Shown piece by piece: positions 4,170 through 13,895 of a DNA stretch of 14,401 bases. Source of the DNA: a bacterium. GTDB lineage: Bacteria; B130-G9. Where the stretch lies: positions 1-14,401 of the forward strand of contig JAGHCW010000123.1 in assembly GCA_021160245.1 (NCBI GenBank), read 5' to 3'. The notes beneath the pieces are model-generated. The model was not told where the DNA came from. It ran no database searches and worked only from the letters and a program-made list of their open reading frames with translations. The first letter of the stretch is position 1, and every line of letters starts with the position of its first letter. Position numbers and translations under genes: made by a program.

Positions 4170-6083
4170 ATGTTCGAGCGCAGAGCTATTTATTTGTTGA
4201 CGCTTGTGTTGGCTTTCTCAGCTTTTGGGACGGCCTTTGCTGATGATTTATTGGTTGGAAAGCTGGCTACCCCGGTTCTCGAGGGGCGCGTTTTGCCTGA
4301 AGGCATGAGAATCGAGTTGAGTTTTGATGATGTGCAAGCCGCATTCGAGTATCTTATCGAGAGAGACACAACGCCCGAGTTTTCGAGCGGGATTGGCCTG
4401 CCTTATCGCAATTCCAGCACCTCACGCCATATATATTGGGACAATGGCATAACAGAGGAAATGCAGACGCTCTATTATCGTGTCAAGGCCTTGCCGTCCG
4501 TGCAAGACATCTCCCATGAGGAGAGCGAGTATTCGAATACTATCACGTTGACACCGATAAACCCGGCTCCTGAGAAGGACGTTCACGTTCTGATTAACCC
4601 CGCGTCGCTGGACTTCCAGACCTTCGTATTCCACAGGGATTTGGTTGTCAAGAATGAGTCGGCAAAGCCGTTGAAGATCTCGCTTTGGCCAAACAAGCAT
4701 TGTCTAGGCCTTTCGACCTATGGCTTTTGGCTGGACCCATGGCGTTCTAAGATTGTTGAGGTCGGACTAGACCGGTCGGAAGTTGAACCCGGCCTGCACG
4801 ATGATTTCGCAGTTATGTTCTTGTCGAATGCTGAGACAGTTGGACCGGCGGGTGTCGCAGACGGCCAGATAGACATTGAGGCGGAGGTTGCCGGCCCGGT
4901 GAAGGTTGCCGACATAGGTCCTTACTTCCTACTAGATGAGACCCCGAATGGGAATGGCCTGATCGAAAGCTGGGAGCATGTCAACTGTCAACTCAAGCTC
5001 ACAAATACAGACAAAAATGTTGAGTCGCTGAATCTTACAGTTAGAATCCTTCCGACAAGGTATGTGGCCTCAGCGTCGCCGACCGTGGTTCATGTCAACA
5101 ACCTGTCTCCGCTTGCGAGCACTTTCGTTCCGTTCTCATTTACTTCTACTCCACCCTCTTTCGATTGCGATTCATCGGAGGGCCCCGTATTCGATGCTGA
5201 GTTCCTTGTCTTGATCAACGACACTCGCGGCTACTCCTGGGAGCAGGTCGTCAAGGTGGGCGTGCTTGCGCCTCTTCAGGTTGCAGTGATGGATTTTGAG
5301 GTTGATGACGACGATCAGGGCGTTTCGGCGACGGTTCCGCACACTCACAACAAGATGATAGAGTGCGGCGAGATAATCGAGGGTCGGATAACATTCATCA
5401 GCAATTACGACCTCCACGAGGTTTCATTGACGCTGAGAGATGACAAGGGGTTTGAGTATCTTCCAGCAGGCGACAATTTCTCCTACGAGAGCGTAGCGAA
5501 TTTGCGGTTCATCCCAATGTGTGGGGAGGTTACACCTGACAGAGATTTTGAGTTCAGGGCGCTTTCCTATGACGCGTCGCCAATTGTCTTTACGCTTGAT
5601 GTGAGCGCCAGCATCGCTCCGGATGTCGCTTACACAAGTCGGCTATATCATCCTGTTGAGTTCCAACGCAACTTCTTGGCCAACGGTCCTTGTGGCCCGG
5701 ACGTAACGATTACAACCACGAATTCCGGACCGCGGAGCAGCGTTCATGATGGGTTTCAGATTCACGCCAATCTCAGGAATCTTGGCCTGGTGGACACGGT
5801 AGTGGACCTCTATGTAGGCGCAATTTATAGAGGCGATGTTTACTATTTCTCATCGGGGTCATTGTTGCCTCAGGCCGGCATTGCCCCGTTTGATTCAGGC
5901 GTATATCTAACGAGGAAGTTCTCGGGGCCAAGTCGCGTGCCGGTGTTTTCAATTGACGATGTCTCGTATCTTAACCGAGGGGAGATCATCTTCGTTGCGG
6001 TTCTCCAAGTGCCTGGTCTGCCGCTTGTTGATAGATGGGCGTGGTATTCGATGGACTGGGATACGGTAAACGTAGATTACTAG
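4170..6083 (+). CDS. Large secreted protein with tandem Ig-like/fibronectin-like beta-domains, unknown function
   Basis: I do not recognise a named family. The 637-aa product starts with a clear Sec signal peptide: FERR, a hydrophobic core at about residues 8-20, and AFA|DD cleavage near residue 24. Residues 28-130 resemble a fibronectin type III-like domain, ending in a YSNTITLTPI strand typical of such domains. From about 137 there is an INPASLDFQTF segment resembling BACON/ASH-type beta-sandwich domains. Two later segments look related to each other: the one around LDETPNGNGLIESWE (near residue 252) and the one around DFEVDDDDQG (near 374). Both are followed by a cysteine and a strand-rich stretch, so a degenerate tandem domain is likely. 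No catalytic motif, C-terminal sorting signal, LPxTG motif or transmembrane anchor is visible. The start is fixed by an excellent ribosome-binding site. A surface or extracellular structural or adhesive role is only inference. Confidence 0.85.
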   Translation: MFERRAIYLLTLVLAFSAFGTAFADDLLVGKLATPVLEGRVLPEGMRIELSFDDVQAAFEYLIERDTTPEFSSGIGLPYRNSSTSRHIYWDNGITEEMQTLYYRVKALPSVQDISHEESEYSNTITLTPINPAPEKDVHVLINPASLDFQTFVFHRDLVVKNESAKPLKISLWPNKHCLGLSTYGFWLDPWRSKIVEVGLDRSEVEPGLHDDFAVMFLSNAETVGPAGVADGQIDIEAEVAGPVKVADIGPYFLLDETPNGNGLIESWEHVNCQLKLTNTDKNVESLNLTVRILPTRYVASASPTVVHVNNLSPLASTFVPFSFTSTPPSFDCDSSEGPVFDAEFLVLINDTRGYSWEQVVKVGVLAPLQVAVMDFEVDDDDQGVSATVPHTHNKMIECGEIIEGRITFISNYDLHEVSLTLRDDKGFEYLPAGDNFSYESVANLRFIPMCGEVTPDRDFEFRALSYDASPIVFTLDVSASIAPDVAYTSRLYHPVEFQRNFLANGPCGPDVTITTTNSGPRSSVHDGFQIHANLRNLGLVDTVVDLYVGAIYRGDVYYFSSGSLLPQAGIAPFDSGVYLTRKFSGPSRVPVFSIDDVSYLNRGEIIFVAVLQVPGLPLVDRWAWYSMDWDTVNVDY

Positions 6084-7258: not shown

Positions 7259-7348
7259 CTTGGATTGGGTGTGGCGTGCAGAATGCCATACGTGATCTAT
7301 GAGATTAAGGATCTATTATGGAATCAATCTGAAAGGAGTCTCCGAGAG

Positions 7349-7996
7349 ATGAAGCGCATCGCTCTAAGTATAGTGTTATTATATGTTCTGGCAGCATCGC
7401 TCAGTCTGATGTCTTGCCATTCAAAGGAAGTGGGTACCGATCCAGATGACACTCGCCCGAGAGTACTTGGGGTTGACATTAAGCAGGGAGAATTCATTCT
7501 CAATCCGCCCTACGTTCTTCAGAAAAGTCGCTTCGAGGATATAACGATTGAAGTAGCGGTTTACGATCCTCAAGCTACGCCCAACGATCCCCAAGGGAGT
7601 GGGGAGATATTGAGGGTCCAGGGGGCGTTCGAGGACCCCGACTTCGGCAATCCTGAGTATGAGGAGAGAGTCACGAATTTTTGGGGCAGTTTCCCGGGTT
7701 GGGAGAACACGATTGGTTCGATTAAGGCCCTTTTGACAAGGGATGAGTACCTCGCAGGTGAGGTCTTTTATGGCCTGGGCTTCGAGGGCGAATTATTGGA
7801 TTCGGGTCCGGGCATGAATAACGCATTCCCAGATAGGATAGCCGGCGACGGCATATATACGATCAAGAAGAATTCCAGGCTCGATCCTAGGACGAAATCC
7901 CACGCGACACGTCCGTGGCATTTCTACTTCTGGGCGACGGACAACGAAGGGCACTCCTCGATTCCCTATCGCTTTGATATATTGATTACGGAATAG
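7349..7996 (+). CDS. Lipoprotein with extracellular beta-domain, unknown function
   Basis: The frame is open from 7265, but I place the start at the ATG at 7349. AAGGAG at 7333-7338 lies 10 bases upstream, and the product then begins with a proper lipoprotein signal: MKRIALSIV, a hydrophobic core and the lipobox LMSC with Cys23 as the lipidated residue. The mature protein would be about 193 aa. Its C-terminal part has the pattern AFPDRIAGDGIYT followed by aromatic strands ending WHFYFWATDNEGH. I know this Asp/Gly-rich GDGIY turn from Ig-like domains of secreted and anchored bacterial proteins (choice-of-anchor X type). A role at the envelope is likely; a precise function is not visible. The gene follows accA after 90 bp. 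Serine after the lipid cysteine gives no inner-membrane retention signal in the classical rule, so outer-membrane sorting is possible. Confidence 0.78.
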   Translation: MKRIALSIVLLYVLAASLSLMSCHSKEVGTDPDDTRPRVLGVDIKQGEFILNPPYVLQKSRFEDITIEVAVYDPQATPNDPQGSGEILRVQGAFEDPDFGNPEYEERVTNFWGSFPGWENTIGSIKALLTRDEYLAGEVFYGLGFEGELLDSGPGMNNAFPDRIAGDGIYTIKKNSRLDPRTKSHATRPWHFYFWATDNEGHSSIPYRFDILITE

Positions 7997-10188: not shown

Positions 10189-11415
10189 TTGGATTTGGAT
10201 AGGGCTCTTATGCGACTGCTGGACGCAACGACAGCAGAGGTTTACACGAAGGATGAGCTTCGCCAGAAGCTCGAGAAATCAGCCAAGACAGGAAAGCCCC
10301 TGAGGGTCAAATTGGGCGTCGATCCGACTGCCCCGGACATCCATCTCGGGCACGCCGTGGTCTTGCGGAAGATGCGCGCCTTCCAAGATTTGGGCCACAT
10401 TGGCGTTCTGATTATTGGCGATTATACAGCTAGGGTTGGTGATCCGACCGGAAGGAGCAAGACGCGACCGCAGCTGAGCGATGACGAGATCGAGGCCAAT
10501 GCTAAGACCTACAAAGAGCAGGTCTTCAGGATACTCGACCCCGAACGAACCGAGATCGTATGCAACGGTGACTGGTTCAAGGAGCTCGCCTTCTCCGATG
10601 TGATAAGGCTCGCCTCGCGTTTTACGATCGCCCGTCTTCTTGAGCGGGATGACTTCACGATACGGTTGGGAAAGAACCTGCCCATCAGCCTTCACGAAAT
10701 ACTGTATCCCGTTATGCAGGCCTACGATTCTGTGATGGTCAAAGCGGACGTTGAACTTGGCGCAACGGAGCAGACCTTTAATATACTCATGGGCCGGCAA
10801 TTACAGGACCAAATGGGGCAAGAACGACAGATAGGGCTGCTTGCTCCGATACTAACGGGCATTTGCGGCTCAGTGCGAATGTCCAAGAGCATTGGCAATT
10901 ATATTGGCATCATGGAAAAACCTAGCGATATGTTCGGCAAGACAATGTCGATTAAGGACGAGTTGATAGGAGAATACCTGCGACTGGCAACGGATTTTGA
11001 GGCCAGCCATATCGAACGGTTAGAGCGTGCTCTTGCGGATCAAAGCAAGAACCCAAGAGACATTAAGTTCGAGGTGGCAAAGAGGATAGTCGCCATATAT
11101 CACGGGGATGAGGCCGCCGATGAGGCCGCCTCGGAATTTGAGCGAGTTTTCAGCAGGGGAATGGCCCCGAGCGAGATGCCGGTGATGACGCTCCATGAGC
11201 AACACATCACCGACGGGCGCGTCTGGATAGCGAATTTGCTCAAAATCGCCGGAGTCGCGACATCCAACTCCAGCGCGCTTGGGCTTGTGCGCCAAGGAGC
11301 AGTCTCCTTGGATGGAAAGCAGGTCACATTGGACCACGCCGACGTCAAGGTCGCCTCAGGTATGGTGTTGAAGGTCGGTAAGCACAGATTCTTCAACATT
11401 CAGCTCGAACGGTAG
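10189..11415 (+). CDS. tyrS: Tyrosyl-tRNA synthetase
   Basis: This class I enzyme charges tRNA-Tyr with tyrosine. The 408-aa protein carries LGVDPTAPDIHLGH (HIGH motif HLGH at 52-55), GDYTARVGDPTGRS (77-90), and the second signature as RMSKS at 230-234. That variant puts it in the TyrZ-like branch (usual KMSKS), not the E. coli KFGKT type, and has Arg at the first position; the catalytically more important second Lys is kept. Residues of about 345-408 form the C-terminal S4 RNA-binding domain (GLVRQGAVSLDGKQV). The start is a TTG at 10189 preceded by AGGAG at 10174-10178, which overlaps the dnaG stop codon. The later ATG at 10210 would cut off seven residues. The 13-bp gap to dnaG points to one operon. 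Confidence 0.95.
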   Translation: MDLDRALMRLLDATTAEVYTKDELRQKLEKSAKTGKPLRVKLGVDPTAPDIHLGHAVVLRKMRAFQDLGHIGVLIIGDYTARVGDPTGRSKTRPQLSDDEIEANAKTYKEQVFRILDPERTEIVCNGDWFKELAFSDVIRLASRFTIARLLERDDFTIRLGKNLPISLHEILYPVMQAYDSVMVKADVELGATEQTFNILMGRQLQDQMGQERQIGLLAPILTGICGSVRMSKSIGNYIGIMEKPSDMFGKTMSIKDELIGEYLRLATDFEASHIERLERALADQSKNPRDIKFEVAKRIVAIYHGDEAADEAASEFERVFSRGMAPSEMPVMTLHEQHITDGRVWIANLLKIAGVATSNSSALGLVRQGAVSLDGKQVTLDHADVKVASGMVLKVGKHRFFNIQLER

Positions 11416-11436: not shown

Positions 11437-12666
11437 ATGGTTGTGGAGAAAGAGAATATACAGGATGGGAGCCCGAAGGGGACAGATCAACCAACAAGAA
11501 GCAGAAGAAGGCCCAGCCGACGACGCAGGTCACCCGGGAGCCAGCAACGGCAGTCCTCCGGCGACCAGCAGCGGCAGTCCTCTGGAGATCAGCAACGGCA
11601 CTCCTCTGGAGACCAACGACGTCAGTCCTCCGGCGGCCAGCGGCGTCAGTCTTCCGGCGAGCAGCGCCAATCATCCGGGAGCCAGCAGCGGGAGTCCTCC
11701 GGTGACCAGCAACGCCGGTCATCAAGAGGACGACGACCATCAAGAGGACGCTATCGCAGTCAGCGATCAGGAGAGGGCACAACAAAGCAGCGCCCTGACC
11801 TTGTAGCCGTTAAGGACAAAGAGATAGATGTCGATAGAATCATGAAGCGCCTTTCGGAACGCGCCTCACAGATTCATCACGAGATACTCGATGGTCCCAC
11901 GGGAAGAGTCATTGATACGACAAGGCCACCCTCCGAGCGATCGAGGGAGAATCCCAGGGAGGCTCTGGCGATCAAGTTCGTGAAGGCGGCAGTCGGAAAT
12001 GACGATGTGCTGGAGATGATGGCCTCCCAGGAATGGAATCTGGTCATGGACTATAAGATAGAATCGCATCGAGCGGGACTCGTCGCGGCGCCTCTTATGC
12101 TCATGAAGCGCATCATAAGAAGATTCACCAGACTCTACACTGATTTCATCGTTACTCGCCAGAATCGAATCAACACATATCTTGTAAATCTGTGCACCCA
12201 GCTTGTAAGAGAATTGGCGCAGATTCAGATAGAACACGAACGTGAAGTCGCGAGGCTGCAAGGGCTATCACAGAGTCAGGATGCAAGAATCTCCTCCAGT
12301 GTTGCCGCCATAAACGCTCGGTTTGACAATGACGAGGCGCGGTTGGACCTGCTTCGGAGCGAGCTCGAGGTTTTGGCTCAAGCGGCTGAGGAAGCGCGAG
12401 CCCCGATCGCCAGAGCCCATGAGCATTTTGATGACGATATGTCAGAGGGGCTTGCCGAGGAATTTGCCGCGTCAAGAGAGATAGCAGATGCTTTTGAGTC
12501 ACCGGCGGATGAAGTAGTCGGCTTCGACTCAGCGTATGAGTCGGCAAAGGTTCCAGAAACGAAGGCGGAGATTCCTGAGAGTCCCAAGGATGACATGGAA
12601 GCGCAAACTCCCTCGAACTCTCCGGATGACAATGATAAGCCTGCGGAGGATAACAGGGAGCTTTGA
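11437..12666 (+). CDS. Repeat-rich basic/acidic coiled-coil protein, novel architecture
   Basis: No named family is recognised. In the 409-aa product, residues 21-110 are strongly basic and dominated by eight copies of an octapeptide G-D-Q-Q-R-Q-S-S, then SRGRRPSRGR, so this part is almost certainly disordered and could bind nucleic acid or polyanions. Residues 131-143 (DVDRIMKRLSERA) and 220-262 (LMLMKRIIRRF to RQNRIN at 241-246, then LVRELAQ) resemble, from memory, a module found ahead of polysaccharide glycosyltransferase or methyltransferase domains. No such catalytic domain follows. Instead there is a coiled-coil-like helix at about 255-325 and an acidic tail from about 331 rich in Asp, Glu and Pro. 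The start is uncertain: ATG 11437 has GGAG directly against it, while GTG 11443, two codons later, has the same GGAG at six bases. It lies 21 bp after tyrS. Confidence 0.8.
   Translation: MVVEKENIQDGSPKGTDQPTRSRRRPSRRRRSPGSQQRQSSGDQQRQSSGDQQRHSSGDQRRQSSGGQRRQSSGEQRQSSGSQQRESSGDQQRRSSRGRRPSRGRYRSQRSGEGTTKQRPDLVAVKDKEIDVDRIMKRLSERASQIHHEILDGPTGRVIDTTRPPSERSRENPREALAIKFVKAAVGNDDVLEMMASQEWNLVMDYKIESHRAGLVAAPLMLMKRIIRRFTRLYTDFIVTRQNRINTYLVNLCTQLVRELAQIQIEHEREVARLQGLSQSQDARISSSVAAINARFDNDEARLDLLRSELEVLAQAAEEARAPIARAHEHFDDDMSEGLAEEFAASREIADAFESPADEVVGFDSAYESAKVPETKAEIPESPKDDMEAQTPSNSPDDNDKPAEDNREL
11536..11724 (+). repeat. In-frame tandem repeat, 8 units of 24 bp (one of 21 bp)
   Basis: Units start at 11536, 11560, 11584, 11608, 11632, 11656 (21 bp), 11677 and 11701. 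The consensus encodes Gly-Asp-Gln-Gln-Arg-Gln-Ser-Ser. The units differ mainly at third codon positions (serine as TCC, TCT or TCA; arginine as CGG, CGT or CGC). That pattern fits a repeat kept as protein, not a recent DNA expansion. The sixth unit lacks one codon but keeps the frame. Confidence 0.9.
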
Positions 12667-13895
12667 ACGAAGCTGTAAAGGACGGGTCGCTGCCTCATTC
12701 TGCGATGAAGGCACTTGATGCCGCGCTGGGTCGAAATGACGAGACGCTCCTGCGAATTAGCACCGAGCTGTTCGAGAACCCAGAATTGAGCGGAGCAGAG
12801 AGCCTGGCATCGACCCTTTTGTCTGAGGTATTGCAGGAGCGGGGATTCGATGTTGACATCGCGATACCTGACCTCCCTACGGCATTCGTTGCGAAGTTTT
12901 CCATCGGCAAAGGGGGAGGCCCCAGGATAGGCTTCTTCTGCGAATATGACGCTCTGCCTGAACTCGGCCACGCCTGCGGCCATAACCTGATTGCAGCGGC
13001 AAGTCTCGTGGCGGGCATTTCTGTCGCCGACAGTCTTGTGGCCGAGAGTGGAGAAGTTTGGGTTATCGGCTCGCCGGCCGAGGAGACCTTCGGAGGCAAG
13101 ATTGGGCTTCTGCGGTCCGGCCAGCTCGACGGCCTTGATGCAGCCATGATGTTTCATCCGGGACAAAAGACGAGAGTCTGCTCGCTCCGGTCGGTGGGGA
13201 CCGAGCCGCTGGAGGTTACGTTCTATAAAGAGAAAATACCCGGCAGCGGAAGGTGCATACCCGCAAGCCCCGTGCTGGCTATCACAGCGCTCTTTCAGTC
13301 CATCCCATCCGTGGCATCGCTCTTTCAAGAACGCGTGCTGTTCCCCGGTGTCATCATCGAGGGCGGAAGCCGGCCCAATGTTATCCCTAAGAAGACCGTC
13401 GCCCGGTTCAGCCTAAGGGCAGGAAGCAGAAAGGTCCTCAGACAACTGATGAGCGAATTCCAACGCTGCGTACGCGCCTCAGCCCAGATATCCGGCTGCA
13501 GCTACTCAATCCGCCAGCACGAGCCCGGATACAAGCCGATCATCGTCAACCAAACAATCGGTCACATCTGCGAGGAGTACCTAATTCAGGAGAATATGCC
13601 CCCGTGCGCGGAGCCGCCGGAATCGCCCGGCGCATACGATATCGGGAACGTTAGTCGTATTCTTCCGGTGATTCATCCGATTATCAGCAAGGGTTTTGAG
13701 AACGTCTCGCCGCACACCCAGGAGTTCGCGGAGGTGGCCGGCTCTGAGGTGGGGCTCGATTGCGCGAGGCTTGCGGCCAAGATTCTTGCTCGCACCGCGC
13801 TCAGACTGCTCCTTTGCCCCGAGGAGCTTGAGGCCAGCAAACGAGAGCTTGACCGGCAGGGAGATCGTGGCAGGACTCAATCGCCGTTTTCATAG
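12663..13895 (+). CDS. M20-family amidohydrolase/peptidase (ACY1L2/AbgB-like)
   Basis: This is a metal-dependent hydrolase of amide bonds, probably cytoplasmic, closest to the M20 proteins that cleave N-acyl amino acids, p-aminobenzoyl-glutamate or beta-alanyl dipeptides. The 410-aa protein keeps the family metal site: EYDALPELGHACGHN (93-108, with Cys105 and His107), catalytic/ligand Glu140-Glu141 in SPAEETFGGK, His165 in MMFHPG and His351 in SPHTQEF. YDIGNVS (325-331) and GGSRPNVIP (234-242) are also typical. The lid-domain signature GKxAHA is missing: the matching stretch is VTFYKEKIPGSGR (185-197), with proline where the histidine should be. The start is a TTG overlapping the previous gene's stop by 4 bp, which suggests translational coupling; ATG 12705 is an alternative 14 codons on. 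Substrate is unknown. Confidence 0.85.
   Translation: MNEAVKDGSLPHSAMKALDAALGRNDETLLRISTELFENPELSGAESLASTLLSEVLQERGFDVDIAIPDLPTAFVAKFSIGKGGGPRIGFFCEYDALPELGHACGHNLIAAASLVAGISVADSLVAESGEVWVIGSPAEETFGGKIGLLRSGQLDGLDAAMMFHPGQKTRVCSLRSVGTEPLEVTFYKEKIPGSGRCIPASPVLAITALFQSIPSVASLFQERVLFPGVIIEGGSRPNVIPKKTVARFSLRAGSRKVLRQLMSEFQRCVRASAQISGCSYSIRQHEPGYKPIIVNQTIGHICEEYLIQENMPPCAEPPESPGAYDIGNVSRILPVIHPIISKGFENVSPHTQEFAEVAGSEVGLDCARLAAKILARTALRLLLCPEELEASKRELDRQGDRGRTQSPFS

What the first reader, a model, noticed from the sequence alone, without database searches (positions are those of the whole stretch)
11437..12666. Protein with octapeptide-repeat basic head, glycosyltransferase-associated module and acidic tail but no enzyme domain
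The order is charged repeats (residues 35-97), DVDRIMKRLSERA, the RRF...RQNRIN segment, a coiled coil and an acidic tail. The middle resembles a module I recall ahead of polysaccharide glycosyltransferases and methyltransferases, here standing alone. A polyampholyte scaffold that could recruit cell-envelope enzymes or condense with nucleic acid is conceivable. This is the most unusual protein in the window.
Basis: partly seen in the sequence, partly recalled or inferred. Interest (0 to 1): 0.6.

Follow-up and report, generated by a model that had tools for sequence, protein, structure and literature searches.

The report
Stand-alone sugar-chain assembly scaffold protein
A protein with no enzyme of its own carries the same membrane-anchor module that elsewhere sits beside sugar-chain building and capping enzymes, so it is probably a detached scaffold for making surface polysaccharide in a little-known bacterial phylum.

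Summary
The ORF at 11437-12666 (409 aa) is real. It has orthologues in all four genomes of its phylum that are held (NCBI label of the nearest: Candidatus Coatesbacteria), always between tyrS and an M20 peptidase gene. The octapeptide array exists, but only in this species; the sisters have an unrepeated basic tail of the same length and similar charge. A profile built without Coatesbacteria finds all four proteins (E 1e-14 to 1e-16), and hhalign gives 98.5%. The module has no Pfam or NCBIfam entry. In other bacteria it occurs alone, immediately upstream of a particular GT4 gene, or at the N-terminus of coiled-coil methyltransferases. It tracks Wzm/Wzt-type glycan export: 34 of 35 module genomes have Wzt_C, against 83 of 351 others. 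It also tracks the partner GT4 subfamily (16 of 17 genomes), which Coatesbacteria encode elsewhere, along with wzm and Wzt_C (4/4) and a second, methyltransferase-fused module (3/4). Best reading: a trans-acting membrane scaffold of a WbdD-like polymerise-and-cap machine, lacking the capping enzyme, with charged disordered tails added in this lineage. Homology and genome context are shown; the biochemical role is inferred. The tails remain unexplained.

The parts
11437..12666 (+). whole gene, 409 aa, stand-alone module protein
   Evidence: ORF; orthologues in 4/4 phylum genomes at 45-47% identity over the full length
11437..11790 (+). basic low-complexity N-terminal tail, residues 1-118, predicted disordered
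   Evidence: pLDDT about 36-46; net +18 here and +13 to +19 in three orthologues, lengths 114-125
11539..11727 (+). octapeptide (24-bp) repeat array, residues 35-97
   Evidence: absent in sister species
11818..12243 (+). conserved module shared with GT4-adjacent and methyltransferase-fused proteins, residues 128-269
   Evidence: hhalign; HMM; alignment A6
11830..11889 (+). first helix of the module, DVDRIMKRLSERA motif, residues 132-151
12073..12171 (+). basic amphipathic segment (SHR..K..RR..Y..RQ..N signature), residues 213-245; likely membrane-surface anchor
   Evidence: best 18-mer muH 0.64, charge +4, shuffle P 0.0065; R212, K224, Q242, N246 nearly invariant
12172..12429 (+). continuation of the long helix, residues 246-331, putative coiled-coil stalk
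   Evidence: AF2 pLDDT about 88-96 from 241 to 320; heptad periodicity not significant
12292..12372 (+). Coatesbacteria-specific near-invariant block SSSVAAINARFDNDEARLDLLRSELEV, residues 286-312
   Evidence: alignment A1; outside the shared module match
12430..12663 (+). acidic C-terminal tail, residues 332-409
   Evidence: net -20 to -33 in the four orthologues for the tail counted from residue 313
10189..11415 (+). tyrS, conserved upstream neighbour (not part of the proposed function)
   Evidence: synteny
12663..13895 (+). M20 peptidase-family gene, conserved downstream neighbour, overlaps by 4 nt

Best explanation
The protein is a stand-alone, enzyme-less version of an undescribed module that belongs to ABC-transporter (Wzm/Wzt)-dependent polysaccharide assembly. 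Shown: homology to the module; the module's fusion to methyltransferases through long helical stretches; its position directly upstream of one GT4 subfamily; its near-complete restriction to genomes with Wzt_C; and the presence of those partners in Coatesbacteria. Inferred: a basic amphipathic helix (213-245) lies on the cytoplasmic membrane face, residues 246-331 form an oligomeric stalk, and the module recruits the orphan GT4 encoded elsewhere in the genome (G000 contig C236) so that glycan extension takes place beside the methyltransferase that carries the second copy of the module (contig C106) and beside Wzm/Wzt. This would be a WbdD-like scaffold in reversed order (anchor, coil, enzyme), here without the capping enzyme. 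The basic and acidic tails, confined to this lineage, probably tune membrane, lipid-carrier or self-association; that step is a guess.
For: Profile built without Coatesbacteria finds all four orthologues at E 1e-14 to 1e-16; hhalign 98.5%. Stand-alone modules 21-86 bp upstream of GT4 in G079, G221, G366, G089, G100 and G238. Methyltransferase fusions; one directly follows a Wzt (L060), and Wzt_C lies within 300 bp of the module in five genomes. Module x Wzt_C 34/35 vs 83/351, P 1.4e-18; module x GT4 16/17, P 8e-18, and within Wzt_C genomes 16/16 vs 18/101, P 1e-10. All four Coatesbacteria have one GT4 of that subfamily that groups with the module-adjacent GT4s of G079/G221 (99/98), plus wzm and Wzt_C; the module-methyltransferase fusion is in 3/4 and in G001 about 10 kb from wzm/wzt. 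Known precedent: WbdD-type coiled-coil proteins are membrane-associated scaffolds with an amphipathic helix and a polymerase-recruitment site (PMC11231755; PMC3482155).
Against: The gene sits in a housekeeping locus (dnaG-tyrS-M20), not with any polysaccharide gene, and the GT4 partner is unlinked. Heptad periodicity is not significant. Membrane binding and GT4 binding are untested. Amphipathicity is weak in several homologues (shuffle P 0.1-0.25). Co-occurrence statistics are not corrected for phylogeny, and the four Coatesbacteria count as one lineage. G003 lacks a detectable methyltransferase fusion (its genome is 83% complete).
Confidence: 0.66

Rival explanations
1. A polyampholyte that binds or condenses nucleic acid through its R-rich tail and acidic tail; the helical core only oligomerises it.
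For: N-tail net +13 to +19, R/S/Q/P/G-rich, in all four orthologues, with dN/dS 0.29; the gene lies in an operon-like run with dnaG and tyrS.
Against: The most conserved part is the glycan-pathway module, not the tails; homologues outside the phylum start close to the module and lack the tails; no nucleic-acid-binding domain.
Confidence: 0.1
2. The module was co-opted in Coatesbacteria for a task linked to its conserved neighbours (tyrS, M20 peptidase, accA, dnaG), for example a membrane tether for that gene set, and no longer works in glycan assembly.
For: Synteny tyrS-this-M20 is conserved across three genera, with accA-lipoprotein-dnaG upstream where the contig reaches; lineage-specific near-invariant block 286-312.
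Against: The module's signature residues are all kept; the matching GT4 subfamily and wzm/Wzt_C are kept in all four genomes; polysaccharide genes are scattered in this genome anyway (C172, C236, C106), so the neighbours say little.
Confidence: 0.16
3. General coiled-coil membrane protein (PspA-like), with similarity to the module caused by shared helix composition.
For: One of the four members hits PspA TIGR02977 at E 2.5e-4.
Against: The match to the module spans distinct motifs in order (IDV..IM, W, SHR, K, Y, RQ..N) and is specific in both directions; only one member hits PspA.
Confidence: 0.04

Closest known systems
WbdD (E. coli O9a / K. pneumoniae O3 chain-terminating kinase-methyltransferase)
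   Same: Long helical stalk plus amphipathic membrane segment in a Wzm/Wzt_C glycan pathway; proposed role of recruiting a glycosyltransferase and scaffolding the complex (PMC11231755, PMC3482155).
   Different: No kinase or methyltransferase; anchor is N-terminal to the stalk instead of C-terminal; two charged disordered tails; unlinked gene; sequence relation to WbdD was not tested.
Unnamed module + coiled coil + class I methyltransferase proteins (L013, L047, L057, L058, L059, L060, L061)
   Same: Homologous N-terminal module and following helix.
   Different: They carry a C-terminal methyltransferase (Methyltransf_23/11 in L047, L057-L061); the window protein ends in an acidic tail.
Stand-alone modules directly upstream of GT4 genes (L049, L050, L051, L053, L020)
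   Same: Same module, no enzyme domain; closest by identity are those of G079 and G221 (30-32%).
   Different: Only 150-190 aa, no tails, gene abuts the GT4 gene and in two checked cases follows a UbiA gene; here the GT4 is on another contig.

Membership tests
Unnamed GT4/methyltransferase-associated module | Sequence homology over the module (profile built without the query lineage) | tested here: met
Unnamed GT4/methyltransferase-associated module | Signature residues of SHR..K..RQ..N (R212, K224, Q242, N246 here) | tested here: met
Unnamed GT4/methyltransferase-associated module | Genome also encodes Wzt_C export and the GT4 subfamily | tested here: met
Unnamed GT4/methyltransferase-associated module | Gene adjacent to GT4 or Wzt, or fused to methyltransferase (common but not strictly defining: adjacency to the GT4 subfamily also fails in G131, G150, G268 and G350) | tested here: not met
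   window; GT4 locus L069
WbdD-type chain terminator | Methyltransferase and/or kinase catalytic domain | tested here: not met
WbdD-type chain terminator | Extended coiled coil used as ruler | tested here: inconclusive
   long confident helix but heptad signal not significant
WbdD-type chain terminator | Membrane-associated amphipathic helix | tested here: inconclusive
   predicted amphipathic and basic in the window protein; binding not tested
WbdD-type chain terminator | Recruits the polymerase glycosyltransferase | not testable with these tools
   only monomer prediction available
Glycosyltransferase or methyltransferase enzyme | Catalytic domain | tested here: not met
Nucleic-acid-binding polyampholyte | Binds or condenses RNA/DNA | not testable with these tools
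   composition only
PspA/IM30 | Match to TIGR02977 across members | tested here: not met
   1 of 4 members, E 2.5e-4; none for the window protein

The most novel reading that the evidence does not exclude
An undescribed, widespread anchor/recruitment module defines a second, reversed-order architecture of WbdD-like polymerise-and-cap machines, and in Coatesbacteria a detached copy with charged disordered tails acts in trans from an unrelated locus as the scaffold for an unlinked polymerase.
Probability: 0.45. Interest if true: 0.6.

Novelty: new variant of a known kind. Interest (0 to 1): 0.5.

Why it matters
How Wzm/Wzt-dependent glycan machines bring polymerase, terminator and exporter together is known mainly from Enterobacteria. 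A module with no Pfam or NCBIfam entry that marks 34 Wzt_C genomes, links one GT4 subfamily to coiled-coil methyltransferases, and also exists as an enzyme-free scaffold would give a search handle for such machines across many lineages and a direct test of whether anchor and ruler can be separated from the cap.

Tried and rejected
Pfam, NCBIfam and PHROG hits: none above cut-off. PDB by sequence: none for the core. Plasmid records: no match for the core or for a methyltransferase-type module, so no annotated names could be taken from there. GT4 against PDB: weak hits to PimA and Tll1590 only, and no NCBIfam equivalog above cut-off, so its sugar is unknown. A module beside the orphan GT4 of Coatesbacteria: none found by HMM in L069-L072; the gene upstream in three genomes is an ATP-cone/P-loop protein. 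Fold search of the model was not run: outside one long helix confidence is low and matches would be meaningless. A heptad test failed to support a canonical coiled coil. One Pfam scan first used the wrong strand for L057 and was corrected.

Full report
WHAT IS THERE. The window is contig C205 of a 3.43-Mb assembly; the nearest named records are labelled Candidatus Coatesbacteria. ORF 11437-12666 encodes 409 aa. All four genomes of the phylum that are held have one orthologue, 45-47% identical over the full length and 59-65% in the core, always between tyrS and an M20 peptidase gene, with dnaG upstream of tyrS in the two named records where the contig could be followed further, and accA and the lipoprotein gene before that in one of them. 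Between the two nearest orthologues dN/dS is about 0.23 in the core, 0.29 in the N-tail and 0.84 in the C-tail (a rough NG86 estimate on one pair).

ANATOMY. Residues 1-118 are a basic disordered tail. The octapeptide array at 35-97 is real (lag-8 identity 40/55, shuffle maximum 26) and is a 24-bp minisatellite in the DNA, but no sister species shows any repeat there. What is kept is length (114-125) and net charge (+13 to +19). AlphaFold2 with three sequences gives helices at 132-151 and 173-187 and a single helix 213-331, with pLDDT about 88-96 between 241 and 320; both tails are disordered. The start of the long helix is basic and amphipathic (muH 0.64, charge +4, shuffle P 0.0065). A heptad pattern further on is not significant. 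The last 78 residues are acidic. A second block, 286-312, is nearly invariant in Coatesbacteria but outside the shared module.

THE MODULE. An HMM of the Coatesbacteria core found distant hits. Each was either a short protein, in two cases beside a GT4 gene, or part of a longer methyltransferase protein. A new profile made only from those non-Coatesbacteria sequences then found all four Coatesbacteria proteins at E 1e-14 to 1e-16, as well as 31 of 382 other genomes. hhalign of the two families gives 98.5%, E 2.5e-15, over window residues 128-269.

ARCHITECTURES. (a) Stand-alone 150-190 aa, 21-86 bp before a GT4 gene in six genomes; the upstream gene was checked by Pfam in two and is UbiA in both. 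(b) N-terminal to a class I methyltransferase with helical sequence between; L060 lies directly after a Wzt with Wzt_C. (c) The window's own genome has a second copy of type b, 830 aa, on C106. No Pfam or NCBIfam family covers the module.

GENOMIC CONTEXT. Of 386 genomes, 117 have Wzt_C; of 35 with the module, 34 do (P 1.4e-18; without Coatesbacteria 30/31, P 1.5e-16). Wzt_C lies within 300 bp of the module in five genomes. The GT4 subfamily occurs in 17 genomes, 16 with the module (P 8e-18), and within Wzt_C genomes 16/16 against 18/101 (P 1e-10). These tests are not corrected for phylogeny, and the GT4 query was chosen because it abuts a module in G079. In Coatesbacteria the GT4 is present once per genome, unlinked, with no module beside it, and it groups with the GT4s that abut modules in G079 and G221; these are also the modules most like the window's. 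wzm and Wzt_C are present in 4/4; the methyltransferase fusion is in 3/4, in G001 about 10 kb from wzm/wzt. Glycan genes are thus scattered in this lineage, which makes the tyrS neighbourhood less informative.

HOW IT MOST LIKELY WORKS. In enterobacterial prototypes a membrane-bound coiled-coil protein carries the chain terminator at its far end, recruits the polymerase near the membrane through a region with an amphipathic helix, and so sets chain length; Wzt recognises the capped end (PMC11231755; PMC3482155). The methyltransferase proteins here have the same elements in reverse order. The window protein has the anchor and stalk but no cap. The best reading is a scaffold that holds the GT4 at the membrane within reach of the methyltransferase and transporter. 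Binding, membrane attachment and any ruler function are inferred.

WHAT IS NOT EXPLAINED. Why the lineage added about 120 basic and about 100 acidic residues, why the N-tail seems constrained in charge, what block 286-312 does, and why the gene lies apart from the glycan genes.

VERDICT. The protein is a new variant of a known kind (coiled-coil scaffold of ABC-dependent glycan assembly), not a new kind of system. The wider finding, an unnamed module tracking Wzt_C and one GT4 subfamily, may be of more use than this one gene.

Noticed in passing
G000 contig C106, L047:2678-5170 (-): 830-aa protein: module, long helical repeats with a recurring WLSNLE-like unit, then methyltransferase; beside it a gene that by its sequence looks like a lipid A-type acyltransferase. 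Stretch before the methyltransferase varies in length between Coatesbacteria, as a ruler would.
   Followed up: partly
L090 (G100:C132), L093 (G366:C6), L082 (G031:C54): About 800-aa proteins whose C-terminal half is the partner GT4; the N-terminal half looks like a second GT-B domain by eye. In G031 a module match follows 177 bp later.
   Followed up: partly
L070:6398-7573, L071:1654-2841, L072:3348-4523: Gene directly upstream of the orphan GT4 in three Coatesbacteria; in L070 and L071 it encodes an ATP-cone plus P-loop kinase-like protein (weak zeta-toxin similarity), L072 has an ORF of the same length and place; absent there in the window species.
   Followed up: partly
window 4170-6083 (+): 637-aa protein with apparent signal peptide and only a weak below-cut-off Pfam match (Transglut_i_TM); possibly a secreted or envelope protein.
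   Followed up: no
window 7265-7996 (+): Lipoprotein-like gene with no Pfam match, conserved between accA and dnaG in L005.
   Followed up: no
L015/L064 (G163), L052 (G350), L016 (G089): Other stand-alone modules of 190-270 aa with no GT4 gene recognised in the stretch read (neighbours include a caspase/FGE-sulfatase protein and, by eye, a GalT-like gene), so detached modules are not unique to Coatesbacteria.
   Followed up: partly
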